This document shows, piece after piece, positions 15,461-64,000 of a DNA stretch of 64,000 nt. The first letter of the stretch is position 1; each line of letters begins with the position of its first letter. The position numbers were made by a program, and so were the translations under genes. This DNA comes from Axinella damicornis. Taxonomy: Eukaryota > Porifera > Demospongiae > Axinellida > Axinellidae. Below the pieces are notes generated by a model. The model searched no databases. It saw only the letters and a list, made by a program, of their open reading frames with translations, and had not been told where the DNA came from. Where the stretch lies: assembly GCA_963931865.1 (NCBI GenBank), contig OZ007517.1:3724164-3788163 (forward strand), written 5' to 3'.

Positions 15461-15651
15461 CCCCGATAAAAGCCATGGGATATTTGTGTCCAGCTGCAAC
15501 ATGGCTGAACCTCATTATGGGAATACCAGTTGTACCGGTATATACATGTACCATGAGCTACCGAGAGTTAGTTGCAATCACTGTCTTGCTATCTGAGGGC
15601 TTAGCTGCCTCTTGTCCTAGCTACATACATAGCTGAAGGATAAGTACTCCC

Positions 15652-15703
15652 TCGCCTCGTTCCCAGGCTCTCGTTCTCGAACGAGTGCCTGGGAACGAGG
15701 CTA
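15652..15703. mobile_element. Minimal 52-bp MULE-like palindrome
   Basis: CCTCGTTCCCAGGC and GCCTGGGAACGAGGCTA face each other with almost no interior. AGTACTCCC occurs at 15643-15651 and 15704-15712, a 9-bp target duplication. It lies just 5' of the hydrolase gene and supplies an upstream in-frame ATG at 15685. Confidence 0.8.
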
Positions 15704-15846
15704 AGTACTCCCCTGTTCCAAAATATTATAGTCTGGAATTTAAGACAAGTACGATAACCTCACTAGTTTCATGTGTATTTCTATTCATTACTGTAGGTCA
15801 GTTAAAGGAGTTTCGGTACAACAAGCATATACGTATAGTGAGGAAG

Positions 15847-43173: not shown

Positions 43174-43269
43174 TCATTGTCATGAGACCAGCTGATCCAG
43201 GCTGACAATCACGATGCACAATTGGATGGTTCCAAGAGCTTTCGCCCTCCACGTTGTCACTAGAATGTT

Positions 43270-44379
43270 CTACTGCTGCTGAGCAGCCTGCTCCCGCTGA
43301 TTCTGGTACAGAACAGCGGGAGTTGAGACCAAAGGGGGTGAATTAAGAGAATCATTTGGGTCCAACAGCGGATTTGTTGGGGTGTTGGGACTCACGCTTA
43401 GGCTTGCAGGTTCATTCAACTGGAGTGTGGCTTGGGCAGGAGAAATGGGACAGTTTTGTTCCTGGATAGCTGGTGCTGTTTCCAGGAGGGGTGGGCCCGA
43501 GGGATGCTTGTAGCAGGGCTCAAGCTTCCATGCAGTCTGTAGCTGTACCCTTTCCCATTCCTGTTCCAGCTGTTTCAGCAGGGCTTCCTCTGCATGGAGT
43601 ATGTACCACCATCTAACAATTTTGCCCTCACCGTTGGTTTTGTACTTCCGTTTCACCTGTACAATACGGCCAACATCAGTCAATCGAGTAATTGACTTAA
43701 TGACGGTAGTGGCTGTACATGCCTTCATAGTTCCCCAGATACGGCGAACACCTGCAAATACCTCCCTTTTTTGGTTAGCACCACCAGATGCAGCATTCTT
43801 GTGGGAAGCATGGCTGTTATGTTTAGAGCCACTACTTTTGGATGGCATACGTGCACCAGAGCCCCCCTTGCCATTTGCCCCCTTCCTTCTACCCACCACC
43901 ACATTCCAGGGTTGCTTGCAATTAGAACTCACTGCTCCCTTCTCCCTGACTCCACCTGCCACAGGACCAGAGCTGGTAGTAGAACAGTTGCACTCCTTTA
44001 GAAGCAATGCCATCGACGCCTTGACTTCCAGCATTTCCTCCGTTAGTGACTGGTTGCTCTCCTGCAGGGCAGTCTTTGTGCTGGCTAGTTCGGTCTTGAG
44101 ATTCTCAACCTCCAACTGTAGCTGCGAGACCAAAGCTCTGTGGGTTTTCAGCTAACAGAACATGCATACAAAGGGCTCTGCTCCCGCTGTTAGTTTCTCG
44201 TAGTGGTAGCGAGTGACCCCTGCACAATAGCGGTGTACAGAGCTGTTACACCCGCCCTCGCAGACCAGCACTTCGTGACTCTCCTCCAGCTGGTCGTAGC
44301 ACAAGTCACAGACCTTCGGTGGTGTCTTCGCACTGGCTCTGGCGCCGGCGACCTTAGACTTCGTCTTCGTAGGTGGCAT
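43270..44379 (-). pseudogene. LINE ORF1: PHD finger, coiled coil, RNA-binding-like domain; one in-frame stop
   Basis: The frame starts at 44379 (MPPTKTKSKVAG) and carries a PHD-like zinc module with CDLC, CEGGC, HRYCAGV and CMFC. Directly after CMFC comes a TAG at 44154-44152 (codon 76), then LKTHRALVSQLQLEVENL in the same frame and 294 more codons to 43270. The second part is a heptad coiled coil, a Lys/Ser-rich linker, and a compact domain with VRRIWGTMKA and IVRWWYILHAEEALL. The relic at 1801-2381 has Ile at the position of the stop, so the ancestor had a sense codon. ORF1 proteins package element RNA. A downstream methionine at 44133 could yield a protein without the PHD part. Confidence 0.85.
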
Positions 44380-45584: not shown

Positions 45585-45955
45585 CTACAGTACACCATAC
45601 AATAATTGTTGTACAGAAGTACCCATGAATACAAAAATCATTATGACAAGTACACACGTACAACAACACCTACAAAAGGTGTTATCCTGGTCTCGGAGTT
45701 GCTGCTGTAGGTGTTCTACTTCCTCCTGCTTAGCCTGCAATTCCATCTGCACTGCTGTGTTGGTTTCTATGAGGGTTGCAACCTCCTCCTGCTTTGCTTT
45801 TAGTTCCGTCTGTACTGCTGTGTTGGTTTTTGTGAGGGCTGCAACCTCATCGTGCATTGCCGTTAGTTCTGTCTGCACTACTGTGTTGTTCTCCATGAGG
45901 GTTGCGACCTCCTTCTCCAGAGCCATCATCCTTTTTTGAAGTGTGTCAGCTTTGG
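45585..45955 (-). CDS. C-terminal coiled coil and membrane anchor exon
   Basis: KADTLQKRMMALEKEVATL leads into three 21-residue repeats of the type TNTAVQTELKAKQEEVATL, each exactly three heptads. A Cys cluster (CRCCCTC) and a hydrophobic run VLVIMIFVFM follow, and the protein ends YGVL. It would be a tail-anchored or single-pass protein with a dimer or trimer stalk next to the membrane. The acceptor joins the death-domain exon in phase. Confidence 0.85.
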
Positions 45956-48900
45956 CTGTAGTTTGTGAGAAATTAATAGCCTTGTAACATTAGAACAGAA
46001 TGTCCTTCTGTACATGCACCAATTTTAATCAGTAAATGCTGGGAGTAAGTACTTGTCATCATAGGCACATTAAATGTTCTTAGTGCTACTCACGTGACCC
46101 TCAACAAATCAGACACCTCAGAATCGATCACATGACTGAACATCAAATCGCTTAATGCACACTTCAGTGTGGATAATACACACCACTTGCTGAAAGTCAT
46201 TACAAACAGCAGACTCTTTGTAACAAACCATTTATGCCAAAAGCTCTTTCCAGATGAAAGGCAGTGGCTTCCTCCCCAGCGTTCCTCAAGGCAGAGGCTA
46301 GATTAAGGACAGTGGGATGAGGGTGGTTGGGTGGAGCCCATTTCAGCCATTGACAAAGCATCCGTTCGAAATAGCCAAGACAGCCTTCAGGAATAAGCAG
46401 TGGCATCCTCTCAATGACATCCAGCTCACTGCAATGAAACTTCAGGTGCATTCCAACAGATCTCCAGCGGGAAACAACAGTCGTTAGGAGGTCCAGAATT
46501 TTTTGTAGATCACCTTCCCCCAAAATTCTTTCACCTTTACGCGCAAAGGGGAACAGAAAATGGTTAAATCAGCTAACAACATGACAATTGTTTCAGTATA
46601 ACATCATGATTAGTTAGCATGGTAGGCTGTATACCACCTCCATACAAGTGTGATGGAAATATACACCATGAATGCACTTACCCTTTGACTGGTCAGAGGG
46701 TACAGGCACTGGGTCAGAGAATGGATGTGATGGAAAGTGTAAAGTAAATTTCCCACGGTCTTCAATAATACCCTTGACACAAATATAGCAGCAATAATCT
46801 GGTGGCGCTTCCAATGGTATGTGAGAAACAGTGAGGAGAATCTTTGGAGGATTTGTATTAGACAACTGCACCGAGTCAGGGTTCGAGGGAGCAAGATCAA
46901 TTTGGTCCTGGGAGATCTGAAAGGTATTAGCCAGAAAATATTATTAATCATGTGATCTACATTGTAGTCATGACTATTACCTACACACTAGTAACACTAC
47001 ACCTCAGGGGTTCTGTCTGGGTCCACACACCATCCACTGATGTCTGAAGGAATATCCAGTGACACCACATTGCTGGAGAGGTGCACACGAGCTATCTCAG
47101 ATGGCCAAAGACGTACGTCGGGGAGCAGCTCCTTCAAATCAGCCAATACATTCTGCATAAATATGAATAGAAGTATACTCACTATTAAGACGGACACATC
47201 ACAAGTACTTGGAGTTTCACAATTACAAACCTTTGGATACAATGGATGACATGGAGTTATGCAAAACACAGCCTTGTTTTGCTCTAGAGAGGGTGACAGA
47301 CTTGAGTACAGTAGCAGAGAGTACACACTCTCACCTGCATGTATACAAAAATGGTGAGACAATATTATTCTGAAGTTATATTGTCTGGAACTACATAAGT
47401 AGCTAGCCCAGATTTTACCTTGTCCAATGGCCACCGTAATGAAGCAAAAGTGACGTAGTGCTACTGTTCCCACAGACTGACCATCTCTGAAAATGTATTT
47501 CTCAGATGGAATCCTCACAAATTGGTACCTGGGGCCATTTGTACCATATACTGGAGTGGTGCTAGCAGAGAGGAACACTATGTTGTCGTCGTCACAGTCA
47601 CTTTTGCTCCGAAGGTCAGCAAAGTGCTCGATGGAGACTTGCACATCCTGAAGGAAATCGGTAGATGCTGTGATGAGATAAACTGGGCTGGCTGGTTTGT
47701 AGCCTTCAGGCAGGATGAATTGGCCATTGAGGCATGGCCTGACGGTGAGATCTACTGCTTCTCCTGCAGCCACTGCTCCAGGGGGAATTTTGATGGTCAC
47801 TCCAAGATCCTCCCTAGCCACTGTATGACCTTCTGATGTGATCTGCTCACGGTGTGCCTCATCACAGAACTCAGCTCCCGGGTAGGTGGGGTCATGACGG
47901 AAGGCTAAGCGAGATAATGACAAACAGTGGATATAAATTTGCTACGTATAATGCAGAATGCCATTTAGAAAGTGAGTATATGCCGAGCACTCTAGAGTGC
48001 TTTCCTCTTGAAGTCTGAGCACAAAGTACAAGGTAGATTCTCTCCGAATATTGTAGCCCACGCCACAAGATGCAAAGTAGATTGTAACAACTACCACTGT
48101 GGCATAAACTATACCCTTTATATACAATCATGTTTCCACAATAAGCTACTGTTTGTGATGTCATGAACCTAGCCTATACACACAATATACATCTTGCTTG
48201 TACTAAATTAGTGATCGTTGCATGTGTACATTGGCATGCAAACCTGGAGAATAGCCACTTGCACCATGTTGTAGCAGAATGTTCACAGCCTCTTGATTTC
48301 CACGTTCAGAAGCAATGTACAGAGGGGTGTGTTCAGCATCATTGGCAGCATTGCAAAGCTTTTCCCCATATTTGGTATCACTGACCAAGAACTGCAAACA
48401 GTAGTAACAGTTACAATAGTGAACACAAACTAGAGAAAGTCCAATCATCTATACATTACTGTACCAGTCAACATGACTAGCAGCTGACACTTGGACTCCA
48501 CATTCCAGTGTTTGCCTGAGGTTTAACTCGACTTCAAACTTTGTGCTATGAACAATGACCTTTTCATGAGTCACCAAGGAAAGGCACTTCCAACTACCTG
48601 TCTCACACCCATGTCATAGCATGTGCTTAGCTTATCTTATCTTTGGGAGACAATCTTACCTCCAAAATGATTTCTAGGCTGCATTTTGCTTCAAAACTTG
48701 TAAAAATTACAGAAGCATGTGTCCTGTCTGGAATGCACTCCATCAAACAATGGTAGGCATCTACACACTGGTGCATAGCTGCAATATGAGCAGGTGTGCA
48801 ACAGTTGTTGTCTTTGGCATAAAGGTCTGCACCACTGTGTGTGTGTGTGCGTGTGTGCATGTTGAAAAAGTTCCAAGGTTACGAGGCAACCCACATTTCA

Positions 48901-51900
48901 CATTGCTTGTACAAGTACATAATCTGTTGTACAGCCATCCTCCATTTTATATCTGCAAATGCCAATGCTCTCAAACAACATGCACTTGCAACATGCTGCA
49001 GACAGGTCACTCAGGCTCAACCTTCAATGTAAAACGTTCACTTCCATGCTGTAGATGAAATGAGCTAATAATATTATTGTTATGCATTCCTATTTCAGCA
49101 AAGCTTGAACTTACCATTCATGAAGAAATCTTATTACTTCCACTCGGTTGTATTTGGCAGCAAGATGGAGTGGAGTGCGCTTGCAATAGTCACAGCATTT
49201 GATGGGTTCTCTCTTCTGCAGAGTTCTCACAATATCGACAAACCCATGCTTAGCAGCAGTGTGGATTGGAGTCCTCTTTTTCTCATTTGCAGCATTCGTT
49301 TTCGCACCCATTTTAATGAGCAGTTCCACAATATCACAATTTCCTCCCATGCAAGCAAGGTGCATTGCAGTGTTCTTTTTCATGTCACAAACCTCCAGTA
49401 CACCTTTTGTATACAGTTGTGATTCAAGAATGCAATCAACAATCGCTAGGTGTCCATGTTGGCAAGCAAGATGAAGAGGACTCTTCCCCTCATTGTCTGC
49501 TTTCATTATAAGTGACGGGTTGGAGCGAAGCAGATGACTTGCAATCCTGGAAGATGACAAGTACAGCAGTAAAACAGATTGTATCTTCCATCCAGACTAT
49601 TGTGGGTCTAAAGTCAACCGCTGGGAGATTTTAGTTTTCTGTACTATAGCATACCTAGGGCGAGTTTTATCCAGTGTTAGAATTTCATGACAGTTGAAGT
49701 TTTCAGGTGGATCACAGAGTATGGTTCAGTCAAAATCCCCCCTCCCCTAAGCAGATTACTTCACACACCCTCCACACCCTTTCTTGCATATGGAAACGGC
49801 CAGCACCAAAAAGTGTAAAGTTAGAAGATCCTGCTTCGCTGACTCAGTTTATCCTTGCTTCAAGACGTCCCATACAATTGATTTGTGGCTTTTGATCACC
49901 AGAATTAGTACCCTTCAGAATGAATCCTTGCAACACTGCATCACACCTCCGAGCCCACTGCCTTCCTTATATGGAGTTCACTGCCTTCTTTCAGAGCTCA
50001 CTACCTTCCTTATATGGAAAGTTCAGAGCTCACTGCCTTCCTTATATGGAATGTTGAGCTCAGTGCCTTCCTTATATGGAATGTTCAGAGCTCAGTGCCT
50101 TCCTTATATAGAAAGTTCAGAGCTCAGTGCCTTCCTTATAGTTCAGTGCTCAGTGCCTTCTTTATAGAGCTCAGTTGCTTTCCATGTAAATAAGGAACTG
50201 AGCTCCCAACGTCTAGCACAGCATTGCAAGCATTCTGTAAAATCATGTGTCATTCTTGGATCACTCTCCTTTCGCTGTTCCTAACTGTACTCTCATAATG
50301 ACTTCATTATAAATGTGGACCAAGAAGATATTTATCATGAATTATTCCCCAGGTCCTTAGCTTGTTTCCAGGATTTGTTGTTTACTTGAAACTTTCAGTT
50401 GAAATATTGACCCATCCTGATGAATTTGGAATTGCATGTGGAACAGATGGCTCAGATCCCACTCATTAAAGGTTACACTACTTGTACATTACAGCATGAC
50501 ATTGTCTAATGTCACAGTACAATGGGGTTAGATCAGGCTGCACATAATAATTGTGTAAGCTGCAACTCACCCATGATATCCCTTTTCAGCTGCAAGATGC
50601 AAGGGGGGTTTGTCATCGTGGTTCACTGCATCAGTCTCTGCTTCGTGTTCTATTAATAGATGTACAGCCACGGAATTGCCTTGCATAACAGCAGTGTGCA
50701 GTAGAGTGTTTCCAGTATCATCTCTGGTTTCACACAACATTTGGCACCAGTCTTTGTTTTCAAGCATAAACTGGGGGAGAGTGATAATTATGTTATAGAT
50801 GTTCGTGCATGCCCATTAAAGTAATGTATTGTGGTGTGAGCGTATGCGTATGTAAGTGCACAAAAGGAATTAGGACTAGACAGTGTGACCCATGCAGTGA
50901 TGTTACTGTTACTCTGCTAGGATACAGCATTACCTTCAGAACAAGATCAGCTTTGAGAGCAAGGACCTTGAACAGTAGATTCTTGTTTGCACCTTCAATA
51001 TTCATCATGTATTTCATAAGACAGTCAAAAGCTTCCGTTCTTTCAAATTTTGCAGCTACCATAACAGGAATGTATGAGTCATCATCTTCAGCGTAGAGTT
51101 TAGCACCCCTGAATGGGTAAAAAGCGTACTCTACACAAGTTTATTAATGTCTAAGCATGCAAGACATTTAGATATAGCTAGCACTTAACAAGCAGATATT
51201 GATAACCTATGAGCCTAGACCTTTTTCAATGTCAAATGTAATTTCTGTAGACCTTGTTAATTTGTACACCCCACTTTTAGTTAAAGATTTCATACAATTC
51301 CTCTATTTATTTGTACAGCCTAGGTACTCCAATGAATTCATACAGCCAAACTGATGTGTATTCGATATGTTACTAATAATCATGTGGTCATCTCCAAACA
51401 AAAGAGCATGCCACATATATAGAAGTCATGCCTGTCAGTGGGTGAGAATTCTTTGTCAAAAGTTCTATCATTTCGCCTAATGTAGCAATGAGCCTCTAGG
51501 ACACCCTACGGTGAAAATTCTATCACCATGCAAGTAGCTTTACTTAGAACAGGTTGGTCCATCCACTTCTCGTAATATTATGCAGCAGTAATTATGCAAC
51601 AGGGACACAGCAATTACTTTCAGAAGTTTACACCTATAACACCAGTTCTTGCTTTTGACACATTATAGCTTTGCAGTATGCTCTCCTGCTGTGTAAATCA
51701 TTCAACATTGAAACCTGTAACTTGAAACCTGTAACTGCATGCCTTTCTACTCAATTTGTAATGCATTTTGCTTTTGTGTAAGCAAGCAATCTATTCTGCA
51801 GTTAGGATAATTCTATTGTACATGCTAGTACTACAACATTGGTGCATCTCACCTGTTGCATAGTATCCTGATCATTTCTGTGTGATTATTCTCTGCAGCA

Positions 51901-54900
51901 TAATGGAGTGGAGTATATTTATGGTTGCCTTCAATTTCGGTGAAAATTCCATCATCCAACAGAATTCCATCATCCAACAAAACTTCAGCAGTACTTGTGA
52001 ACCCCATCTTGGCAGCAATATGTATGGATGCCTCCATGTCATTGTTCCGGGTGGTTTTCACTGCACCATTTTCAATCAGAAGTTTAACAATGTTTGAGCT
52101 ATTTTTCTCACATGCGTAGTGCAATGGTGCGTTTCCATCATTGTCTTGGGTTTCACATGCTTCTGTGAATGATTCCCCTAGCCTTGAAATATGAACTTCC
52201 ACAATATCCACTTCTCCACTGTGACATGCAAGATGAAGTGGAATCATTCCTGATCTGTCTTTGGCATAAACCAATCCTCGGTACTTTGAGATCAGCAAAT
52301 CAGTAATCCTGTAGAACAAATTTGTAAGCTAAATGGTCACACATCTACCCCCAACTAAAAAACCCATACTTACTGTTCATATCCCATTCCAGCAGCAAGA
52401 TGCAGCAGAGTTCTGCCATCTTCATTAGTGGCCTGAGATAATTTTTCCCCCCAATCCAAGTCATTGATCATGAACTGGAAAGTGCAAAATGTATTGTAAA
52501 GCGAATAATACAACACTCAGACCACATGGCATGCAATTTACATACTATACCTGCAAAATAGCCATCTTCTCGTATTGAGCTTGAAATGCCAAGAAAATCG
52601 GATTCTTCTTTGGATCATCTAAATCAACATACTTCATCAAACAATGAAAGGCATCTTCCTTTCCAGAGGCTGCAGCTATCAGCAAAGGAGTGCATTGATT
52701 TTTATCTTTATCATACAGCAGAGTTTGATTCTCCTTGTCACTAAAGCACAGAAAGAAAGAAAGAAGCAATAATATAGTATATTGAAAGGAATTAATATTG
52801 TAACAAAATTAATACCTAATCTGTACATTACAGAAAATCAGTGACCTCACCTGTCACACAGAAATGTGATCATCTTTGTATTGTTGTGGCATGCAGCATT
52901 GTGTAGAGAATTAAATCCATGGGAATCTTTGATTCCGCCACCCACCACCAGCAAACTGCCTATCTGCACATTTCCTTTCCGGGCTGCAATGTGCAGTGGT
53001 ATCTCATCTGTGTCATTTTGGGCAGTAGTATCTGCTTTCATATCAATCAACAGATTCACTATACTTGCACTATTGCTTTCACATGCAAGATGTAGGGGTC
53101 TGTTCCCTTTACTATCACAAGCTTCACGCACTTGTTCCGACATATGCCTACTTAATACAGACACAACAGCCCAATGCCCTCCCTGGCATGCGAGATGTAG
53201 AGCATTCCTTCCATCAGGATCTCGTTCCTCCACCAGTTTGTGATCATACTTGTTCAGCTGTTGCACAGTTCTGGAAAAGAGATGCAGGAATTAAGGCGAA
53301 ATAATCACAAATTGGAAATGCAGAGTAGCTTCAATCAAAATCCATTTTCACCCTGATCACTTCTACAATGCCACCCGATCATTGTGGAAGACATCCAGAA
53401 AAGGAGCAGACAGCAACTGCATGAGGTTCCCTGATCTAGCTGGAAGCTGATGCATGCACTCCTCGATGAGACACCAAAATGAGACAATGAAGTAAGTCTG
53501 CACATACAGTAATTCCCTAAGTTATCTATTGTTCTACGTTGAACAATGGTCTGATGCTGTTTTAACATTAGACACTTCCTCGATACCACTTTGACAGTGA
53601 ATGGCACACGTGGATTCTATTGGACTGTGTTGATACAAACTCAATTGCTTAGTCTCACTTAATATCCAGCGCAGGCACAATTGAGACTTACACATGCTGT
53701 CCATGTTCTGCTGCAACGTGGATAGGTGATTTTCCATGTTCGTTTCGTGCATTGACTTGCACCTTCAGTTTTAACAGCACACTAACAGCTTTCTGATTGC
53801 CATCCCGAGCTGCAACATGCAGTGGGGTGTTTCCATTCTCATCCTTTGCTGCACTGAGTTTTGCCCCCCAACCACTGTCACTGATCATGAACTACACAAA
53901 AATAAGGAACATGAACAGTTTATGAATACCAATTAAGGCAGACATCCAGATTGCTGGCATGTATATGTATATACGTACTTCTAAAATTTCTGCCTGCTTC
54001 CATTCAACATGCAAGATTTTGAAGACAGGATTCCTCTCTGGACTTTCCAGGTCTATATATTCCATGAAGCATTGGAAGGCTGTAGCCTGTCTATGGGCTG
54101 CAGCCATTAGAATGGGTGTGTGGGAGTCCTGATCTTCAGCATAGAGACTTGTGACACCACTGTGTGCAAGTAAAAAGAAAGCCAAAATATGACGCCTTAA
54201 AAACGGCTCATACAAACATATCTTCACTGAAGTTTCATATAAATGTAGACAGTAGCATACAAGCCTACTTGAATGCCACCACAGATCAGGAGAATTTGAT
54301 TACACCATATAGCTCACCACTTTTCGATCAAGAACTGTATCATTTCACCATGGTCGTGTTTAGCCATAGCTGCATGATGTAGGGTAGTGCGTTTGTACTG
54401 GTCCTGACGTAATACAGTGTCAGCACACTTTTCCCAAAGCCTTTCAACAATGCTAACCGACCCATTCTGCGCAGCAATGTGTGTAGGAACCATTCCTTCG
54501 TTGTTAGCTTCACTGACACTTGCACCACTATCAATTAGAAATTGTACAACGTCTTCACTCCTTCCCTCACAAGCAAGGTGCAGTGGGGTGTTGCCACTAC
54601 TATCAGAAGCATGAAGCACCTCATATATACTCAAGTTAAATGTTTTAACGACCTCCACATGTCCACTAAGGCAGGCAGTATGCAATGCAATCCTTCCGTT
54701 AGCATCCGAGGCCACTGTTAGTTGGGGATCGTGATGAATGAATTCCAGTACAACTCTGTAACGGAGAAAAAAGATTCAGATATCATTAGTGATACTGTTA
54801 CTCTTTGTCAGGCAGAGCAACTAACTTGAAATGGCCCTCTTCTGCAGCCAGGTGTATTGGAAGACTTCCATCACAATTTTTTGCATATGGATCAAATTTG

Positions 54901-57900
54901 AGTTGCAGGAGCACTTCCACCGCTACAATATTTCCATGTCTAGCTGCAGCATGTAGTGGGGTGTTTTCATCCACGTCAGTACACTGCTGGAGCTTTGAAC
55001 CCCATTCAACATCACTAAACAGGAACTGCACATGTGCAAGAGAAATAAAACTGATAGTTGATACAGTATGCTCTCATACCGTAGTTTCTCACTAATACGC
55101 CCTTCCCCCTCTTTTTCGCCCAAGTTCCTGCACAGGGTAATTTGACTCGTTTTAACGCCCCCTGGTGAGCGTCTTCTGGAATTATTATTATTATTATTAT
55201 TGTGAACTTTACAGCCATATAACAGGAAATTATTTTAGTGATGGAAACAAGAAAAATGTTGAAGGTAGCGAACAAGGCTGACAGCATACTACCAACAAAC
55301 GGTGTAGCTGCATGGTGTGTATAGAAATATTAAAAGCGTGATGTGATGAGTAGAGACAGCAGGATGAACATGAGGCATGATCTACAGTATTACTATGATT
55401 GCATAATTTGACAAGGTACGTTACTAGCAAGGAGCAAAGAACAGTATACAACACAACAAATACTAACAACGACAACAACAACAGATAAGAGCATGGAAAA
55501 CAGGGATTCAGTTACGGATAGAGGATTGAACAACGTTCCAAAGCATGGCGATACGATTAAAATAGAAGTGCCTCACAGCGGAGGTATGAACCAAGTTGAT
55601 TGTTAACATTCGACCAGTGGAGCCTGCTCTAGTGCATGTACGACGGAAGGTTATGAAGCGGATATTATCATCTGGGTCTTGTAAACATTTCACCAGAAAT
55701 AGGAGATTGTGTAGGTCGAACCAGAGGGAGATTGGCAACAAGCGGAGAGATGTTAGCCTAGATTTATAATCCATAGAATAGTCATTTAGGATGTATTTCG
55801 TTGCCCTTCTTTGTATTCTTTCTAGCATTTGAATATCTTTCACATACCTGGGTTTCCATACCTGGGAGCAGAAAGAAAGATGGGACCTGACCAGTGAGAT
55901 GTACAGTTGTACGTCCACGATACAAGTCATCTAGCTGCAAATGGACAGTATTGCTGTTCTTGCAAGAGGATGGCTACAGCGAAGTCGTCGTGAATGTTAT
56001 GGCCCTCCCATTGAAGTGGCAGCTCTTCTCACCGATGTAGGGAGACCACGCATGATGACCACGAACAGTACTGGCGATCGTTTGTACTTTTGTAATTGTG
56101 AACATCAGTGTCATATAGTTTGTGTATGTATGTAGCAAAACCTTTTTGAGGGGGCGTATAGTCAAGACTAATTGCATATTCGAAAATACGCCCCCTCCCC
56201 ACTTTGGGCTATGGTACTCAAACACAAAAACTTACATTCAGAATATCCTCCCAGCTACAACTGATTTCAATGGCCTTAAAGATGGGATTCTGCTTGGAAT
56301 CACTCATGTCAACAGACTCCATTAGGCAGTGAAACGCTGCAGTGTTTCCATGAACTGCTGCTGCCAAAACTGGAGTGAATGAATCACAGTCTTCAGCAAA
56401 GAGGTCTGCACGACTGTACAAAGATAAAGCAAGAGCGGAAAGTGTCAAGTTGGTACTTGCTGTCAATATAATTCAGCCAAGGTTGCATGCATGAGTAAAG
56501 CTTTCACGGCAAGAGGCATGCTCCAGAATATCTAGCACTATACTTACCGCTTTCTAAGCATCTCAATGATGCTGGTTTGGTTGTACCTGGCAGCAACATG
56601 AAATGGAGTACGTTTCTGTGCATCTAAAGTTTCAGCGGACATTCCATTATCCAGAAGAAGTTCACTGACACTCGTATGTCCATTCTGCACAGCCACATGT
56701 ATCAAACTGTCCTTATTCAAGTTTCTGGCATTCTTGGAACATCCAACTTCAATCAGATATTCAGCCACGTTTCTGTCCCCACTTTTGCATGCAAGGTGCA
56801 GTGGAGTATTTAAATCACAATCTTGAGCTTCACGAACTGTAACCAGACTGAGCTGTGATTTATGAGCCTGCACAGCTTCCAGTTTCCCACACAGGGAAGC
56901 AAGGTGGAGAGGAATCATTCCATTTTCATCTCTATCCGTAACCAGTGAGGCATCACGACCGATAAATGTTTTCACAACACTATAATTCAGAAATATAATG
57001 ATACGGTTTAAACTGAAAGCAAGCAATGCACATGGATTTCAGACTTACACAGGATGCCCTTCCTCAGCTGCAAGGTGCAAGGGCCTCTTTTGGAAGACGT
57101 TCTTTGCTCTGGCATCAAATCCCAGGTCCAGCATGACCTTCACTGCAAGGTTGTTGCCCTGCTTAGCAGCAACATGCAGAGGATTGTTTTCATGCTCTGC
57201 TCTGGAATTCCGTAGCTTTAGTCCCCAGGTGTGGTTGTTGACCAGAAACTGCAAAAGTCATGCAAAATGGTATGAAAGATGAATCACAGAATGAAGCAAT
57301 CATGAATGTTGTTCGTTTCAACAACTGAATTAAGGTACTGTAGTGGGCTTGCTGTTGTATGAGTAATAAGATAAGTATATTGGGCATGTTAATCCACTAT
57401 CACACAAGTGTCAGTTTGTCCAGTTCCAAAGCTCACTTTCAGAATAGCTTCCTGCCTAGACCTGACTTTCAGCACTTGGAATATAGGATTCCCTTCTATC
57501 TTGTCCAGATCCAGGTAGCCCATGAGGCAATCAAATGCACGTGTATGCCCGCAGCTAGCAGCCAGCAGAACTGGAGTACAGAGATTGCAGTCTTCTGCAT
57601 GGATGTTTGCACTACTGTGTAAATGGATAGAAAAAATACAAATACTGTGCTAAGAACATTATCTTTTTCTTCAACACTTGAATTCTACTTTAGTGTTATA
57701 TCCCTCCTTTTGGTTGACTGTATCCTTATTAGACTATTTTGGCCTTCCCTTGCTAACAGCTTGTGCGCATATCATGAGTATGAGGTCGATCCATTAACTT
57801 ACCATTCTCCATACAAGAATTCGATCATTTCATCTTGATTGCACTTTGCAGCATGATGGAGAGGTGTGCACTCATCTGATTCAGATGGGAAGTCAATATC

Positions 57901-58854
57901 AACTCCATTAGCCAATAAAACTTCTGCAATGGGAACGAATCCACACTGTGCAGTGATATGAATGGGAGCCTCTCCTCTGAAGTTGTAGTGATTAAGACTT
58001 GCACTGCAGTCAATCAGTAACTTAACAGAATCACAACTTCCCCCAACACAGGCGAGGTGTAGTGGGGTGTTACCCATACTGTCAGTGTCCTCGAGTAAAT
58101 TTGCACCAGTAACTTCCTGTAACAGCTTCAAACTCTGGGTAAGAATCATCACAACATCTGTTTCTCCATGACGACAAGCAGTGTGTAGTGGAGTTCTTTC
58201 TCTGTTATCTTCACACAGCATCAGTTTAATATCATGGTCAATCAAACGGTTCACAATCCTAGAATGATATGAGAATGGTTATCCAACAAAAGTCCTGACA
58301 GGTGTACTCACACTTTATGTCATACAGACTTACTTTCGTGCTGCCAGGTGCATTGGTGTTTCAAGCTTGCTGTTCTGAGCACTACCGCATGCACCGTGTT
58401 GTAGCAGAATGTTCACAGCTTCTTGATTTCCACGTTCAGAAGCAATGTGTAGTGGGGTGTCTTCAGCATCATTGGCAGCATTGCAAAGCTTTTCCCCATA
58501 TTCGGTATCACTGACCAAGAACTGGAAATAGTAATTAAAGTTACAGTAGTTAACAAACATCAAGTTCAGCAGAACTGTGGAAGTCAATTCATGCATGCAT
58601 CATTCAACATGACTGCTAGCTACAATAGGTGAGCACATCTGGTTGACATTCACGGACTTGCCTCAGGTAAAAATATCAAATCATACCTTCAAAACGATTT
58701 CTCTGTCGGTCTTTACATCAAAACTCGTGAAAATTACAGAAGTATTGTCTGGAATGCACTCCATCAAACAATGGAAGGCATCTGCACACTGGTACATAGC
58801 TGCAATATGAGCAGGTGTGCAACAGTTGTTGTCTTTGGCATGAAGGTCTGCACC

Positions 58855-58942
<88 letters not shown>

Positions 58943-61900
58943 TTGAAAAAGGTTGCAATTAGGTTATGAGGCCAAAGCCAACATTGCTAGAGGGTGTACC
59001 CACTTGGTGTGTGTGTGTGAATGTGCTTATTGAGAAGGTTGCAAGTAGGTTATGAAGTCACACACATTTCACATTGCTACCGGTAGTAAGATGTACCTTC
59101 CAACTAATTCCCTAATCATTTCAGCATTATTCTCTCTAGCTGCGTAGTGGAGTGGAGTATGACCATCCCGAGTTTGACGCTCGGTGGGGACCTTTATGTT
59201 GAGTAGGACCTGAACAATGTGTACATGTCTGGAGCGAACAGCAATATGCAGAGGGGTCTCACGGAGGTTGTTAGTGGCCATTGTGTCCACTTCACTGTCT
59301 ATCAGCAGCTCCACCACACCAACACTGCCTCCAGCACACCCAAGATGAAAGGGTGTGTTGCCTTCAGCATCATGATGCTCATGCAATGATTCAGAATTCA
59401 GCCACAAATGCTCTTTGTGAACTTGAACTATTTTAGTGTGTCCATGAAGACAAGCTAGATGAAGTGGAGTCATTCCACCGTTGTCTTCAGATGTAACCAG
59501 TTTGGAGTCATACATCATCAGTTCCAGGACAACTCTGCATGAAAAACAGGTACAAGGTTGTATAAACTTTCATAACATTATGAGAATGAGAACACAAAGT
59601 TCTACTCACTCATGATGGCCATTTTCTGCAGCTAGGTGCATTGGGGTCTTTCCATCTGCATTTCTGATACAACTATCAACTTTGTGTTCCATCAGGACTG
59701 CCATGGCCGACAGGTCATTATCTCGTGCAGTGATGTGCAGCACACGATTCTTCTGGTTATCAGTGGATTTGATGAGTGTAGCTCCCCACACAGTGTCAGT
59801 GATGAGAAACTATTGGAAGCAATGCATTATGAGTGAGATTGGGAACTTAAGCACAATCATTTTAACTTACCTGCAAAATTTCAATTCGATGCTGTGTCGC
59901 ATTCAGTACTTTGAAAACCGGATTCTTTTGGTCATCTTGGAGGTCCATAGACTTCATTAGGCATTGGAAGGCTTTATTATTCTTGCCTGCCGCAGCAATC
60001 AGAACCGGAGTGCACAGGCTGTGATCCTCTGCATAGACATTTGCACCACTGCAGGAAGTGGTGACAATAATTATTTGAAATATGATACAACAGGATGTTC
60101 TTTAGTACATGCTAAGATCATCTACCGTTGCTGATCAAGGCAGTATGCATGTGAGCTCACCGCTGATTCAAGAATTCAATTATCTTGGTCTGGTTATTCT
60201 CTGCAGCATGGTGAAGCGCTGTGAATCCACGGGCATCCATCAATTCAACTATCGTGTGGCCACCTTTATCCAGAAGCGTCTTAACAATTTCAACTGATTT
60301 GTACTGAGATGCAGTGTGTATAGGGGCTTCTCCTCGTCTGTTGGCTGCTGTTACACTTGCACCACTATCAACCATCAGTTGCACCACATCTACGTTTCCT
60401 CCCACACAGGCAAGGTGTAGTGGGGTGCTGCCACCTTCATCTGTAACCTCAAGTACATTGGTATCAGTAGCTTCAAGTAGCATACGACTCTCTACATAAA
60501 TCCTCACGACTTCTACATGTCCATTTAGGCAAACAGTGTGCAGAGGAGTTCTTTTTCTATTGTCTTTGCAAAGCATCATCTTGGCATCATGGTCAATCAA
60601 CCGCTTCACAATGCTGGAATGAAGTTATCAAACAACATTCAGTACTAGCTATGCTACAATGCACCCACAGATCATGTTATACAGGCTTACTGTTCTAGTC
60701 CCTTTCCCGCTGCCTGGTGCATAGGTGTTTCAAGCTTGCTGTTCTGAGCACTACCGCATGCACCATGTTGTAGTAGAATGTTCACAGCTTCTTGATTTCC
60801 ACGTTCAGAAGCAATGTGCAGCGGGGTGTCTTCAGCATCATTGGCAGTATTGCAAAGCGTTTTCCCATATATGCGATCACTGACCAAGAACTGAAAATAG
60901 TAATTAAAGTTACAGTAGTTTAACAAAAATCAAAACCGTATCCTGAATTCAATACTACCTAGAAGATGTCAACTCACGCATACACATTTATACACCTTTC
61001 CACATGATTGGTACAGTAGGTAAGCACAAGCGGTTGACATCACAGACTATAACCTCAGGTTCATTATAGCTACCCAAGTGTGACTTTGTAATACGGCCTC
61101 AAGTCACACACTTGGTGCTTCTGAAAGCATGAGTTTCGAGTTCGAAAGTATTATGGCTACACTATTTAGTCCCCAAGAAAGGCACTCCGCCAATAGCATG
61201 TGCTTAGTTTAACTTCAGTGAATAGCTGATCTGAAAATCATACCTCTAAAATGATTTCTCTGTTGTTCTTCACTTCAAAATTCGTGAAAATTACAGAAGT
61301 TTGCGCACTGTCTGGAATGTACTCCATCAAACAATGGAAGGCATCTACACACTGGTGCATAGCTGCAACATGAGTAGGTGTGCAATCGTTGTTGTCTTTG
61401 GCATTAAGGTCTGCACCACTGCGTGTGTGAATATGCATATTGAGAAGGTTGCAAGTAGGTTATGAGGTCACACACATTTCACATTGCTAGTAAGACATAC
61501 CTTCCAACTAGTTTCCTAATCATTTCAGCATTATTTTCTCTAGCTGCGTAGTGGAGTGGAGTATGACCATCCCGAGTTTGACGCTCGGTGGGGACCTTTA
61601 TGCTGAGTAGGACCTGAACAATGTGTACATGTCCAGAGCGAACAGCAATATGCAGAGGGGTCTCACGGAGGTTGTTTGTGGCCAATGTGTTCACTTCACT
61701 GACTATCAGCAGTTCCACCACACCAACACTGCCTCCAGCACACCCAAGATGAAAGGGTGTGTTGCCTTCAGCATCACGATGCTCACGCAATGATTCAGAC
61801 TTCAACCACGAATGGTTTTTGTGAACTTGAACTGTTTCAACACGTCCACGAAGACATGCTAGATGAAGTGGAGTCATTCCACCGTTATCTTCAGATGTAA

Positions 61901-63566
61901 CCAGTTTGGAGTCATACATCATCAGTTCCAGGACAACTCTGCATGAAAATGGGTACAAGGTTGTATAAGCTTTGTGTATGCATCATCATATTATAGTAAC
62001 AAAGTTCTGCTCACTCATGATGGCCAGTTTCTGCAGCTAGGTGCATTGGGGTCTTTCCTTCTGCATTTTTGATACAACTATCAACTTTATGTGCCAACAG
62101 GACTGCCATGGCTGGTAGGTCATTCTCTCGTGCAGTGATATGCAGCACACGATTCCCCTCGTTATCGGTGAATTTGATGAGTGTAGCTCCCCACACAGTG
62201 TCAGTGATGAGAAACTATTGGAATCAGGTGCATCATGAATGAAATACAGGGCTTAAAGCACAATCATTTTAACTTACGTGCAAAATTTCAATCCGATTCA
62301 GTGTCACATTCAGTGCTTTGAAAACTGGATTCTTTTTCTCGTCTTGGAGGTCCATAAACTTCATTAGGCATTGGAAGGCTTTCTTATTCTTGCCTGCTGC
62401 AGCAATCAGAACTGGAGTGCACCGGTTACAATCCTCTGCATAGACATTTGCATCACTGTAGAAAGTGGTGACAAGTGGTGACGGATTACAACAGAATGAT
62501 GCTTTTAGCACAGATAAATAGCAAAGAACCTGGTTAGAGGCATATGCATGTACATACTGAGCTCACCACTGATGCAAGAAGACAATTATCTTGGTCTGGT
62601 TATTCTCTGCAGCATGGTGAAGCGCTGTGAATCTGCGGTCATCCATCATTTCAATCATCGTGTGATCACCTTTATCCAGAAGCTTCTTAACAATTTCAAC
62701 AGATTTGTGCTGAGATGCAGTGTGTATAGGAACTTCTCCTCGACTGTTAGCTGCAACGATACTTGCACCACTATCAACCATCAGTTGCACCACATCTACG
62801 TTTCCTCCCACACAGGCAAGGTGTAGTGGGGTGTTACCGCCTTTATCAGTAACCTCACGTACATTGACATCAGTAGCTTCAAGCAGTGAATTCAAATTCT
62901 GGACAAAAATCATCACAACGTTTGTTTGTCCGCTCAGGCAAGCAGCATGTAGAGGTGTTCTTTCTCCACTGTCTTTACCCAGCATCAGTTTAGGATTATG
63001 GGCAATCAGCTGCTGCACTACACTGAAGTGCAAATTGAATTCATAAAGTATAGCATGCATTGGAAGCAAGAAACTATCAGCCATTATTCTTACCTTTGCA
63101 GTCCTCTTCCCGCTGCCAGGTGCATAGGTGTTTCGAGATCATCATTTTGAGCGTCAGCACGTGCCCCATGGTCCAGTAGAATACTCACAGATTCTAGATC
63201 TCCTGATCCAGCAGCAAAGTGTAATGGGGTGAGTCCAGTGTCTTTTGTAGCATGGCAAAGTGTTTCACCATGTTTGAAATCATCAAGCAGAGACTGAAAG
63301 CAATGACAATTGAACTTAGCAATTGAATGTGGTATTACAGCTTCTATAATATTATTATGCATACCTTTAATAGAATTGGTCTCTTGCACTTCACTTCCAA
63401 AGCCAGGAAAATAACAGAAGCATGCACATTCTCTGGAATCTGCTTCATCAAACAATGGTAAGCTTTTACACACTCGTCCATAGCTGCAATATGAGCAGGT
63501 GTGCAGAGGTTGTTGTCCTTGGCATAGAGGTCTGCACCACTGTGTGTGGGTGTGTGTGTGTGTGTG

Positions 63567-63600
<34 letters not shown>

Positions 63601-63615
63601 GTGTGTGTGTGCATA

Positions 63616-63649
<34 letters not shown>

Positions 63650-63651
63650 TG

Positions 63652-63689
<38 letters not shown>

Positions 63690-64000
63690 CATTGGTGTTT
63701 GTGTGTGTGTGTGTGTGTATGTGTGTGTGTGCGTGTGTGTGAGTGCGGTGTGTGTGCATATGTGTGTGGGTGTGAATACTTTGTATGTGTGTGGTGTGCA
63801 TGTACATAGCATGCACAAGTTACTGGAGTGCATGCTATGAAACCTCTTTGCAACCATGCATCTTAACTATTCAAAACAGTCAGAACTTACTTTTCAACTA
63901 GTAGCATAATAATATCAGTATTATTCTTTCTGGCTGCGTAGTGGAGTGGAGTATGACCCTCTAGAGTCTGACATTCAGTGGGAACCTTCAGGTATAGTAG
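45585..64000 (-). CDS. Giant ankyrin-ZU5-UPA-death domain-coiled coil-membrane protein (5' end outside window)
   Basis: I placed 39 exons with GT-AG sites, totalling 10,170 nt in a single frame, so about 3,389 residues before the stop are visible. Order: a very long ankyrin solenoid (11 three-exon cassettes), ZU5 (47419-47904), UPA-like region (47231-47334, 47003-47152, 46682-46916), death domain (46229-46534), and coiled coil plus hydrophobic tail (45585-45955). Phase agreement across every junction argues that the gene is functional. Ankyrin, ZU5, UPA and death domains together recall ankyrins, and ZU5-UPA-DD recalls UNC5 and PIDD. The repeat number and the C-terminal anchor are unlike those. 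A signalling or scaffold role at a membrane is inference. The N-terminus, and any signal peptide, lies beyond 64,000. Confidence 0.9.
46229..46534 (-). CDS. Death-domain exon
   Basis: ILGEGDLQKILDLLTTVVSR is followed by W, LKFHCSELDVIERM, then MLCQWLKW and VLNLASALRNAGEEATAFHL. This is the six-helix death-domain pattern, with the conserved Trp, the LDVIE helix and the final LAxALR-GE-A helix. The exon ends in phase 1 at GTTTGT. Without that splice the frame would stop at 46200 after ten more residues, a possible soluble isoform. Confidence 0.88.
46535..46681. other. Intron, no feature
   Basis: An ordinary short intron of the ankyrin-ZU5-death gene, typical of the 50-350 bp introns in this gene. 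Confidence 0.7.
46682..47334 (-). CDS. UPA-like region (three exons)
   Basis: Exons 47231-47334, 47003-47152 and 46682-46916 encode YSLLLYSSLSPSLEQNKAV, then NVLADLKELLPDVRLW, SNVVSLDIPSDISGW, and a later PPKILLTVSHI strand. This beta-rich region between ZU5 and the death domain, with its Asp-Ile-Gly-Trp strand, fits a UPA domain. The match is by position and pattern only. Confidence 0.65.
47419..47904 (-). CDS. ZU5-domain exon
   Basis: A 162-codon exon in phase 1. GVTIKIPPGAVAAGEAVDL and the later ASPVYLITASTDFLQDVQVS, IEHFADL and ALRHFCFITVA are the beta-strand signature of a ZU5 domain, as in ankyrin, UNC5 and ZO-1. A poly-acidic CDDDN loop sits in the middle. Confidence 0.9.
48244..48834 (-). 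CDS. Ankyrin half-cassette 11 (A11, B11), joins ZU5
   Basis: A11 is 48660-48834 (GADLYAKDNNCCTPAHIAA). B11 is 48244-48391 (148 nt), closely like B3 and B5 up to LLQHGA and then SGYSP, ending in phase 1 instead of 2. The new phase fits the ZU5 exon, so no C exon is used. It is far more similar to cassettes 3 and 5 than to neighbour cassette 10. Confidence 0.88.
49115..51108 (-). CDS. Ankyrin cassette 10 (A10, B10, C10)
   Basis: A10 is 50934-51108 (AKLYAEDDDSYIPVMVAAK). B10 is 50571-50770 (TLLHTAVMQGNSVAV). C10 is 49115-49546 (SPLHLACQHG, TAMHLACMGG, TPIHTAAKHG, TPLHLAAKYN). The B10-C10 intron carries a 35-bp minisatellite (49962-50185). The 744-bp intron between C9 and A10 shows no feature. 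Confidence 0.9.
49962..50185 (+). repeat. GAGCTCACTGCCTTCCTTATATGG minisatellite
   Basis: Six to seven copies of a 30-37 bp unit lie in the B10-C10 intron. Confidence 0.9.
51853..52740 (-). CDS. Ankyrin cassette 9 (A9, B9, C9), one repeat deleted
   Basis: A9 is 52551-52740 (LLYDKDKNQCTPLLIAAAS). B9 is 52374-52474, only 101 nt, which is 99 nt or exactly 33 codons shorter than other B exons. It retains WGEKLSQ, TLLHLAAGMGYEQ and both splice phases. C9 is 51853-52308 (IPLHLACHSG, APLHYACEKN, ASIHIAAKMG, TPLHYAAENN). Confidence 0.9.
52851..54159 (-). CDS. Ankyrin cassette 8 (A8, B8, C8)
   Basis: A8 is 53979-54159 (TSLYAEDQDSHTPILMAAA). B8 is 53692-53891 (TPLHVAARDGNQKAV). C8 is 52851-53270 (420 nt, the shortest C; NALHLACQGG, RPLHLACESN, IPLHIAARKG, NSLHNAACHN). 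The B8-C8 intron (421 bp) holds nothing I recognise. Confidence 0.9.
54318..56413 (-). CDS. Ankyrin cassette 7 (A7, B7, C7), intron enlarged by a LINE
   Basis: A7 is 56236-56413 (RADLFAEDCDSFTPVLAAA). B7 is 54826-55025 (TPLHAAARHGNIVAV). C7 is 54318-54755 (IALHTACLSG, TPLHLACEGR, VPTHIAAQNG, TTLHHAAMAK). The A7-B7 intron is about 1.2 kb because a LINE fragment inserted there. Exon phases are unaffected. Confidence 0.9.
55175..55935 (-). pseudogene. LINE reverse-transcriptase 3' fragment
   Basis: The - strand frame at 55930-55508 encodes VDVQLYISLVRSHLSFCSQV and ERIQRRATKYIL, the C-terminal region after a non-LTR reverse transcriptase. An (AAT)n tail lies at about 55200-55182. It is 5'-truncated and lies in an intron in the same orientation as the host gene. 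The flanking 55070-55170 and 56140-56220 carry ATACGCCCCCTCC-like blocks that suggest an older inverted-repeat element around it. Confidence 0.75.
56548..57614 (-). CDS. Ankyrin cassette 6 (A6, B6, C6)
   Basis: A6 is 57437-57614 (ANIHAEDCNLCTPVLLAAS). B6 is 57049-57248 (NNPLHVAAKQGNNLAV). C6 is 56548-56979 (IPLHLASLCG, TPLHLACKSG, SLIHVAVQNG, TPFHVAARYN). This even-type cassette is more diverged than 2 and 4. Confidence 0.9.
57803..58855 (-). CDS. Ankyrin cassette 5 (A5, B5, C5)
   Basis: A5 is 58687-58855 (169 nt, two codons shorter than A1 and A3) with a long CA-repeat acceptor. B5 is 58334-58521 (188 nt, four codons shorter at its end, closing HLAARK). C5 is 57803-58258 (TPLHTACRHG, TPLHLACVGG, APIHITAQCG, TPLHHAAKCN). 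All length changes are whole codons. Confidence 0.9.
58857..58939 (+). repeat. (TG)41 microsatellite at the A5 acceptor
   Basis: An 83-bp perfect TG run lies immediately upstream (in gene sense, a CA run) of the AG that opens exon A5. Confidence 0.97.
59097..60048 (-). CDS. Ankyrin cassette 4 (A4, B4, C4)
   Basis: A4 is 59871-60048, B4 is 59610-59809 and C4 is 59097-59534. All three keep the lengths of cassette 2 exactly (178, 200 and 438 nt), and the protein differs at a minority of positions. It is a recent tandem duplicate of cassette 2. Confidence 0.9.
60161..61418 (-). CDS. Ankyrin cassette 3 (A3, B3, C3)
   Basis: A3 is 61244-61418 (GADLNAKDNNDCTPTHVAA). B3 is 60691-60890 (FLVSDRIYGKTLCNTANDA). 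C3 is 60161-60613 (TPLHTVCLNG, TPLHLACVGG, APIHTASQYK, TALHHAAENN). B3 is almost the same as B5 and B11. The A3-B3 intron (353 bp of spacer) is longer than in cassette 1. Confidence 0.9.
61501..62455 (-). CDS. Ankyrin cassette 2 (A2, B2, C2)
   Basis: A2 is 62278-62455 (NVYAEDCNRCTPVLIAAAG, AFQCLMKFMDL). B2 is 62015-62214 (NRVLHITAREND, TPMHLAAETGHHE). C2 is 61501-61938 (TPLHLACLRG, TPFHLGCAGG, TPLHIAVRSG, TPLHYAAREN). This even-type cassette is nearly the same as cassette 4, with corresponding exon ends 2,404-2,407 bp apart. Confidence 0.9.
62567..63539 (-). CDS. Ankyrin cassette 1 (exons A1, B1, C1)
   Basis: A1 is 63365-63539, with a CA-repeat acceptor and GADLYAKDNNLCTPAHIAA. B1 is 63094-63293, with a TPLHFAAGSGDLESV repeat. 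C1 is 62567-63022, with repeats TPLHAACLSG, TPLHLACVGG, VPIHTASQHK and TALHHAAENN. Phases are A 2-0, B 0-2, C 2-2. This is an odd-type cassette, related to cassettes 3 and 5. Confidence 0.9.
63541..63778 (+). repeat. Interrupted (TG)n microsatellite at the A1 acceptor
   Basis: About 240 bases of TG with TGCATG, TATG and GCGC interruptions abut exon A1. Frames rich in HTHT or VCVC are artefacts. Confidence 0.96.
63891..64000 (-). CDS. Ankyrin exon C0, cut by the window edge
   Basis: The 3' end of a C-type exon, with KVPTECQTLEGHTPLHYAAR and a phase-2 end before GTAAGT. It matches the ends of C2 and C4, which implies at least one more cassette to the right. Confidence 0.9.

What the first reader, a model, noticed from the sequence alone, without database searches (positions are those of the whole stretch)
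45585..64000. Ankyrin-ZU5-UPA-death domain-coiled coil-anchor protein of more than 3,300 residues
Thirty-nine exons splice in one frame to a domain order I do not know from a described protein: scores of ankyrin repeats followed by the ZU5-UPA-death module of UNC5, PIDD and ankyrin, then a heptad stalk and a membrane anchor. A death domain on a huge variable recognition array would suit an innate-immune or allorecognition adaptor. Seen: domains and frame. Known: ZU5-UPA-DD is a signalling or scaffold module. Inferred: the role.
Basis: partly seen in the sequence, partly recalled or inferred. Interest (0 to 1): 0.88.

Follow-up and report, generated by a model that had tools for sequence, protein, structure and literature searches.

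The report
Giant ankyrin-array ZU5–death-domain scaffold gene
This stretch of an animal genome, probably a sponge's, holds more than half of one predicted giant gene: a row of repeated ankyrin modules followed by a ZU5 domain and a death domain, a design like that of the well-known ankyrins, and the protein would likely act as a very long docking scaffold for signalling inside the cell.

Summary
The observation largely holds. On the minus strand, 39 exons in the window (45585-64000) splice in one frame with GT-AG introns. The array runs 16 kb beyond the window, giving a model of 69 exons and 5,847 residues without an internal stop. The ankyrin part is a three-exon module repeated 20 times, grown by copying two-module blocks. 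ZU5 and Death pass Pfam cut-offs as single frames. Fifteen relatives of the ZU5 exon, 65-81% identical, exist in public contigs. UPA is not detected. The coiled-coil/anchor exon hangs on a weak splice donor and found one 49% hit. ANK-ZU5-UPA-DD is the ankyrin order, so the domain order is not new; new are the single ZU5, the cassette array and its size. A 'variable recognition array' was tested and gained no support. A Cys at the ZU5 self-cleavage position is a lead, but close relatives mostly have Ala there. Most likely a multivalent death-domain scaffold; function is inferred, transcripts are lacking.

The parts
63891..64000 (-). exon A11 (ankyrin), window part; exon runs to 64310 beyond the window
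63365..63539 (-). exon C11 (spacer)
63094..63293 (-). exon B11 (ankyrin)
62567..63022 (-). exon A10 (ankyrin)
62278..62455 (-). exon C10 (spacer)
62015..62214 (-). exon B10 (ankyrin)
61501..61938 (-). exon A9 (ankyrin)
61244..61418 (-). exon C9 (spacer)
60691..60890 (-). exon B9 (ankyrin)
60161..60613 (-). exon A8 (ankyrin)
59871..60048 (-). exon C8 (spacer)
59610..59809 (-). exon B8 (ankyrin)
59097..59534 (-). exon A7 (ankyrin)
58687..58855 (-). exon C7 (spacer), acceptor in a (CA)n run
58334..58521 (-). exon B7 (ankyrin)
57803..58258 (-). exon A6 (ankyrin)
57437..57614 (-). exon C6 (spacer)
57049..57248 (-). exon B6 (ankyrin)
56548..56979 (-). exon A5 (ankyrin)
56236..56413 (-). exon C5 (spacer)
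54826..55025 (-). exon B5 (ankyrin)
54318..54755 (-). exon A4 (ankyrin)
53979..54159 (-). exon C4 (spacer)
53692..53891 (-). exon B4 (ankyrin)
52851..53270 (-). exon A3 (ankyrin)
52551..52740 (-). exon C3 (spacer)
52374..52474 (-). exon B3 (ankyrin, short)
51853..52308 (-). exon A2 (ankyrin)
50934..51108 (-). exon C2 (spacer)
50571..50770 (-). exon B2 (ankyrin)
49115..49546 (-). exon A1 (ankyrin)
48660..48834 (-). exon C1 (spacer), acceptor in a (CA)n run
48244..48391 (-). exon B1 (truncated ankyrin exon; its donor leads into ZU5)
47419..47904 (-). ZU5 exon; HFC near its end
   Evidence: Pfam ZU5 27.9 bits; 15 relatives 65-81% identical
47231..47334 (-). exon in UPA position, part 1
   Evidence: phase-matched; also readable in relatives P0004 and P0006; no Pfam UPA hit
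47003..47152 (-). exon in UPA position, part 2
   Evidence: donor fourth weakest of 68; no Pfam UPA hit
46682..46916 (-). exon in UPA position, part 3 (NPPKILL motif, like YPPRILL of paralog L016)
   Evidence: no Pfam UPA hit
46229..46534 (-). death-domain exon
   Evidence: Pfam Death 26.6 bits; weak acceptor and donor
45585..45955 (-). coiled-coil exon with hydrophobic C-terminal segment and stop; linkage uncertain
   Evidence: search gave one hit at 49% identity

Best explanation
A minus-strand gene is predicted to splice 69 exons (39 in the window) into a 5,847-residue protein with twenty ankyrin modules, one ZU5 domain and a death domain, and this protein likely works as a very long intracellular docking scaffold that would gather many partners along the array and recruit signalling proteins through its death domain. 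Shown by calls: the open exons with matching phases, the ZU5, Death and ankyrin matches, and the cassette duplication. Inferred from knowledge of UNC5b, ankyrin and NLRP1: the ZU5 and the segment after it would pack on the death domain and keep it quiet until load or ligand on the array loosens it. Uncertain: the C-terminal coiled coil and hydrophobic tail, which would make the protein multimeric and membrane-held if they are really spliced on.
For: One phase-consistent reading without internal stop over 69 exons; phase-blind splice test, 63 of 63 donors and 52 of 63 acceptors; the genome-wide ZU5 search has one hit in this locus, at the C-terminal exon, and none between the 20 modules, so one C-terminus serves the whole array; Pfam ZU5, Death and Ank; coding constraint: closest A-exon pairs dN/dS 0.52-0.62, substitutions rarer at ankyrin core positions; 15 foreign relatives of the ZU5 exon, two of which (P0004, P0006) also carry the next exon; a ZU5 and a region 41-42% identical to our DD also lie together in the Kelch-bearing locus L027.
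Against: No transcript evidence. With a mild penalty for starting a new gene (-14) my gene finder cut the stretch into eight genes; it gave one gene at -40 and beyond. UPA undetected. DD sits at threshold in context (22.2 against 22.6 bits), its exon has weak splice sites, and Pfam does not call the matching region of L027 Death. Single-sequence AlphaFold models are poor (pLDDT 54.5 for DD, 46.8 for ZU5) and Foldseek found nothing significant. Three upstream acceptors (B15, B18b, B20b) are weak. No partner, ligand or expression data.
Confidence: 0.45

Rival explanations
1. An ankyrin-like cytoskeletal scaffold: the array ties membrane proteins to the cortex and the death domain has no death-signalling role, as in canonical ankyrins.
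For: Same order as ankyrins, ANK-ZU5-(ZU5)-UPA-DD (PMC5135030 passages); the poor ZU5 model's best PDB matches are ankyrin-B and ZO-1 ZU5, E 0.88 and 1.0, not significant; a ZU5 profile built from four members finds ZO-1 ZU5 at E 5e-9 and ankyrins at 0.2-1.2.
Against: One ZU5 instead of the tandem; 20 modules instead of 24 repeats; UPA undetected; spectrin-binding residues not tested. [quoted passage not shown]
Confidence: 0.25
2. A self-cleaving sensor of the NLRP1/CARD8/PIDD kind: the ZU5 would cut itself at HF|C, the array-ZU5 part would stay bound until degraded, and the freed C-terminal part with the death domain would then assemble and signal.
For: HFC lies near the end of the ZU5, where HF/S (PIDD, Nup98) and SF/S (CARD8, NLRP1) are cut, and Ser, Thr or Cys can serve as nucleophile in such reactions (PMC3210808 passages); own-genome ZU5 rows have HF[C/S] in 9 of 19 alignable and any F[C/S] in 15 of 19 (20 rows from 18 loci, L013 left out, L022/L023 and the two L026 rows nearly alike).
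Against: In the closest relatives the nucleophile position is mostly Ala: 10 of 12 alignable (8 HFA, 1 QFA, 1 PSA), with one HFC (P0004) and one HFS (P0011); Ala would not cut. No His lies 26-28 residues before the Cys, where CARD8 and rat NLRP1 have theirs 27 before the Ser (counted by eye on the sequence; numbers).
Confidence: 0.12
3. Several neighbouring genes or a decaying array wrongly read as one gene.
For: Gene finder splits at mild penalty; one intron of 2,853 nt and truncated exons A19, B1, B3; LINE-like frames in and near the locus.
Against: No internal stop in 69 exons, regular phase cycle 2-2, 2-0, 0-2, dN/dS about 0.5-0.6 for the closest A pairs, only one C-terminal ZU5 exon in the locus.
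Confidence: 0.18

Closest known systems
Canonical ankyrins (ANK1/2/3 and invertebrate orthologs)
   Same: Ankyrin array, then ZU5, then a segment in UPA position, then death domain.
   Different: One ZU5, not two; 20 three-exon cassettes with spacers, not 24 repeats; UPA not detectable; a possible coiled coil and hydrophobic end instead of the ankyrin tail (tail recalled).
UNC5 / UNC5CL and PIDD (ZU5-UPA-DD module; domain make-up partly recalled, partly PMC3210808 passages)
   Same: Order ZU5, UPA position, DD at the C-terminus.
   Different: Ankyrin array in place of ectodomain or LRR; UPA unproven; Cys instead of Ser at the PIDD cleavage position.
NLRP1 / CARD8 FIIND
   Same: Cleavage-type motif near the end of ZU5.
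   Different: DD instead of CARD; HFC, not SFS; nucleophile position Ala in 10 of 12 alignable close relatives.
Death-domain expansions of marine invertebrates, including ankyrin-bearing TRADD-N proteins of Amphimedon (PMC8195603 passages) and NACHT-Zu5 of sponges (PMC12909245 passages)
   Same: Death or ZU5 domains shuffled onto repeat arrays.
   Different: TRADD-N and NACHT not seen in the window exons scanned with Pfam (upstream exons and most C and B exons were not scanned); array far longer.

Membership tests
[quoted passage not shown]
   20 A-C-B modules; 98 repeats above 3 bits with a home-made HMM trained on this same protein
Canonical ankyrin | tandem ZU5-ZU5 | tested here: not met
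   one ZU5 in the spliced C-terminus and one in the locus
Canonical ankyrin | UPA domain | tested here: inconclusive
   no Pfam UPA; position kept in paralogs and one exon in two relatives
Canonical ankyrin | death domain after UPA | tested here: met
   Death 26.6 bits for the exon frame alone, 22.2 in the spliced context, cut-off 22.6
Canonical ankyrin | spectrin-binding residues | not tested
   no reference sequence was fetched
ZU5-UPA-DD module (UNC5, PIDD) | ZU5 domain | tested here: met
   27.9 bits, cut-off 21
ZU5-UPA-DD module (UNC5, PIDD) | UPA domain between ZU5 and DD | tested here: inconclusive
   as above
Self-cleaving ZU5 (PIDD, NLRP1, CARD8) | F followed by Ser/Thr/Cys at the cut position, conserved | tested here: inconclusive
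   HFC here; Ala in 10 of 12 alignable close relatives
Self-cleaving ZU5 (PIDD, NLRP1, CARD8) | actual autocleavage | not testable with these tools
   needs expressed protein
Tail-anchored coiled-coil protein | C-terminal hydrophobic segment spliced to the DD | tested here: inconclusive
   best 19-mer hydropathy 2.44, highest in the protein, but weak donor; one hit, 49% identity over 79%, E 1.4e-12, which may be coiled-coil likeness only

The most novel reading that the evidence does not exclude
A lineage built a death-domain scaffold of nearly 6,000 residues by stamping out a two-module exon cassette, so that array length, and with it the number of docking sites, is an evolvable and perhaps individually variable dial on one death-domain output; in this species the ZU5 also carries a Cys that lets it cut itself and turn the array into a removable lid.
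Probability: 0.12. Interest if true: 0.78.

Novelty: new variant of a known kind. Interest (0 to 1): 0.52.

Why it matters
If transcripts confirm it, this is an exceptionally long ankyrin-repeat gene feeding one ZU5-death-domain end, from a genome rich in death and ZU5 domains (at least 150 and 48 hits). [quoted passage not shown] That point needs the species to be named, which no call did.

Tried and rejected
Rejected: 'unknown domain order' (ankyrins share it). Rejected as unsupported: hypervariable recognition surface. Downgraded: UPA (no HMM hit), membrane anchor, self-cleavage. Led nowhere: homolog search scored on the ZU5-to-DD part of a pasted 1,838-aa query found none among 6,875 candidates (candidates were limited to similar total length); solved-structure search with the 427-aa C-terminus, 0 hits, with the DD pair, one unrelated hit at E 0.21, with the 17-row ZU5 alignment, two ZO-1 hits at E 0.2 and 0.3; scans of bacterial/archaeal and viral contigs with the ZU5 alignment, 0 relatives; single-sequence folds of DD and ZU5 and their PDB searches, nothing significant; poly(A) signals do not separate the two possible gene ends; Rfam, 0 matches in 40000-64000. 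Ankyrin HMM on the other ZU5 loci L013-L031 (1.5 kb upstream for 12, about 6.7 kb for 7): no convincing ankyrin, best E 0.4, with the own locus as positive control; a further 7.5 kb upstream of L016 was only looked over by eye; 28 of the 48 ZU5 hits were not examined. My first impression that L022 is an NB-ARC protein was not borne out (no Pfam family).
Full report
The locus. The window is C13:3724164-3788163 of a 226.5 Mb genome in 120 contigs. All exons lie on the minus strand. Coordinates above 64000 are window coordinates extended into the neighbouring loci L009-L012.

Gene structure. Stop-to-stop frames show ankyrin-bearing exons from 48 kb to the window end and on to 80284. A home-made gene finder with generic splice profiles and a hand-curated exon list gave a final model of 69 exons and 17,544 coding bases, 5,847 residues, no internal stop, median intron 101 nt, range 61-2853. 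Every junction has AG and GT (with the two corrections: the ZU5 acceptor at 47904 and the B15 acceptor at 69682). The gene finder was not neutral: at a new-gene penalty of -14 it produced eight genes, at -40 one.

The cassette. Three exon types alternate: A (mostly about 438 nt, phase 2 to 2), C (mostly about 178 nt, 2 to 0), B (mostly about 200 nt, 0 to 2), 20 times; three B exons upstream of the window are split in two. Looking only for the best-scoring site within 25 nt, regardless of phase, returned the model donor in 63 of 63 and the model acceptor in 52 of 63 array exons. Pfam finds ankyrin repeats in 10 of 10 A exons and 5 of 5 B exons given to it; of 5 C exons one had a sub-threshold match. 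By length, each module is roughly six ankyrin repeats plus a spacer of about 59 residues.

How the array grew. A module tree groups 7, 9, 11 and 1; 8, 10 and 12; 16 and 18; 17 and 19, with starred support. Alternation of the classes means that blocks of two modules were copied. Module 1, next to ZU5, belongs to the 7/9/11 class. dN/dS between the closest pairs is 0.52-0.62 for A exons, 0.16-0.64 for B, 0.27-1.88 for C (few synonymous changes in C). Core ankyrin positions change in 62 of 416 comparisons, DARPin-type binding positions in 42 of 142, other surface positions in 61 of 180; the last two do not differ (p 0.47). So the array is under ordinary folding constraint, without sign of selection for a variable binding face.

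The C-terminus. ZU5 (27.9 bits) and Death (26.6 bits) pass their cut-offs as single frames; in the 657-aa spliced C-terminus ZU5 is 26.4 and Death 22.2, the latter just below 22.6. The three exons between them have no Pfam UPA match, and exon-wise no UPA rang in the genome or the controls. Their position, the first of these exons in relatives P0004 and P0006, a shared NPPKILL/YPPRILL motif with paralog L016 and a weak phmmer match to L016/L017 (E 0.0085) suggest a diverged UPA; this is not proof. A four-row ZU5 profile finds the ZU5 of ZO-1 at E 5e-9 and ankyrins at 0.2-1.2. AlphaFold models from single sequences had pLDDT 46.8 (ZU5) and 54.5 (DD); their best Foldseek hits were ankyrin-B and ZO-1 ZU5 (E 0.88, 1.0) and, for DD, huntingtin-HAP40 with a Fas-FADD chain third (E 2.9): nothing significant.

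The coiled-coil exon. Its phase fits the DD donor, but that donor (ATG|GTTTGT) is the fifth weakest of 68 and 12.7% of 2,022 background GT sites score as high. If it is not used, the DD frame reads on to a stop at 46200. A search with this exon found one protein, 49% identical over 79% of the query, E 1.4e-12, on a 3,117-base contig; coiled coils align easily, so I do not count it as a relative, whereas the ZU5 exon found fifteen foreign relatives. The exon's last 30 residues hold the most hydrophobic 19-mer of the whole protein (2.44). I keep the exon as possible, not shown.

Relatives. The ZU5 exon search gave 16 proteins among 72 candidates: P0001 is listed as the window's own; 15 others are 65-81% identical. 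Whether ankyrin arrays precede them is unknown. Among the 19 other own-genome ZU5 loci held (L013-L031, of 47) the nearest is about 32% identical (L016/L017), so no recent paralog was seen. L027 reads Kelch (Pfam), coiled coil (by eye), ZU5 and a region 41-42% identical to our DD, though Pfam does not call that region Death; L021 has two Death stretches before its ZU5. No convincing ankyrin was found upstream of the 19 loci in the DNA held, with a working positive control.

Self-cleavage lead. The ZU5 ends ...GTVALRHFCFITVA. PIDD, Nup98, CARD8 and NLRP1 cut between F and S at this place, and Ser, Thr or Cys may act as nucleophile (PMC3210808, passages); in rat NLRP1 a His is also needed (PMC8081665, passages). 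Among own-genome rows HF[C/S] stands in 9 of 19 alignable (20 rows from 18 loci; L013 was left out), but in the close foreign relatives Ala stands there in 10 of 12 alignable (HFA 8, QFA 1, PSA 1), with one HFC (P0004) and one HFS (P0011) (four rows had a gap there: P0012, P0013, P0015 and L028). The HF part may be structural. I give cleavage about one chance in eight.

Literature. Passages were read in PMC5135030, PMC8195603, PMC6208332, PMC8260672, PMC3210808, PMC8081665, PMC12909245 and PMC8781854; no paper was read whole, and other titles were seen in search listings only. In the searches for ZU5/death domain/ankyrin with sponge, with UPA, with NLR and Amphimedon, with genome, with Porifera, and for giant ankyrin arrays no listed title or abstract start, and no passage read, describes such a gene; the library holds open-licence papers only, and lists were cut at 12 to 25 titles.

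Verdict. A real, very large, cassette-built ankyrin-ZU5-death-domain gene model: a new variant of a known kind. Function is inferred.

Noticed in passing
window 40318-44151, minus strand: A LINE-type element with two long open frames (293 aa and 951 aa, endonuclease/reverse-transcriptase-like; naming by eye) lies about 1.4 kb downstream of the gene's stop.
   Followed up: no
window 55508-55930, minus strand: Open frame that looks (by eye) like the end of a LINE reverse transcriptase, inside the intron between exons C5 and B5.
   Followed up: no
window 48834, 58855, 63539 (minus): (CA)n runs end directly in the acceptor AG of three C exons (C1, C7, C11); the microsatellite itself would serve as the 3' splice tract.
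   Followed up: partly
extended 94007-98284 (in L012), minus strand: Single open frame of 1,426 aa with a right-handed-beta-helix-like N-part and several hydrophobic segments (by eye), the next long frame upstream.
   Followed up: no
window 15637-17366, plus strand: Two overlapping open frames (312 and 287 aa) that look by eye like parts of secreted enzyme-like proteins.
   Followed up: no
L027 (C5:12687557-12697556): Kelch plus a long coiled coil (by eye) plus ZU5 plus a death-like region: another sensor-ZU5 combination in the same genome.
   Followed up: partly
whole genome: At least 150 Death and 48 ZU5 exon hits, many close together; of 980 Death candidates only 150 were scored.
   Followed up: partly
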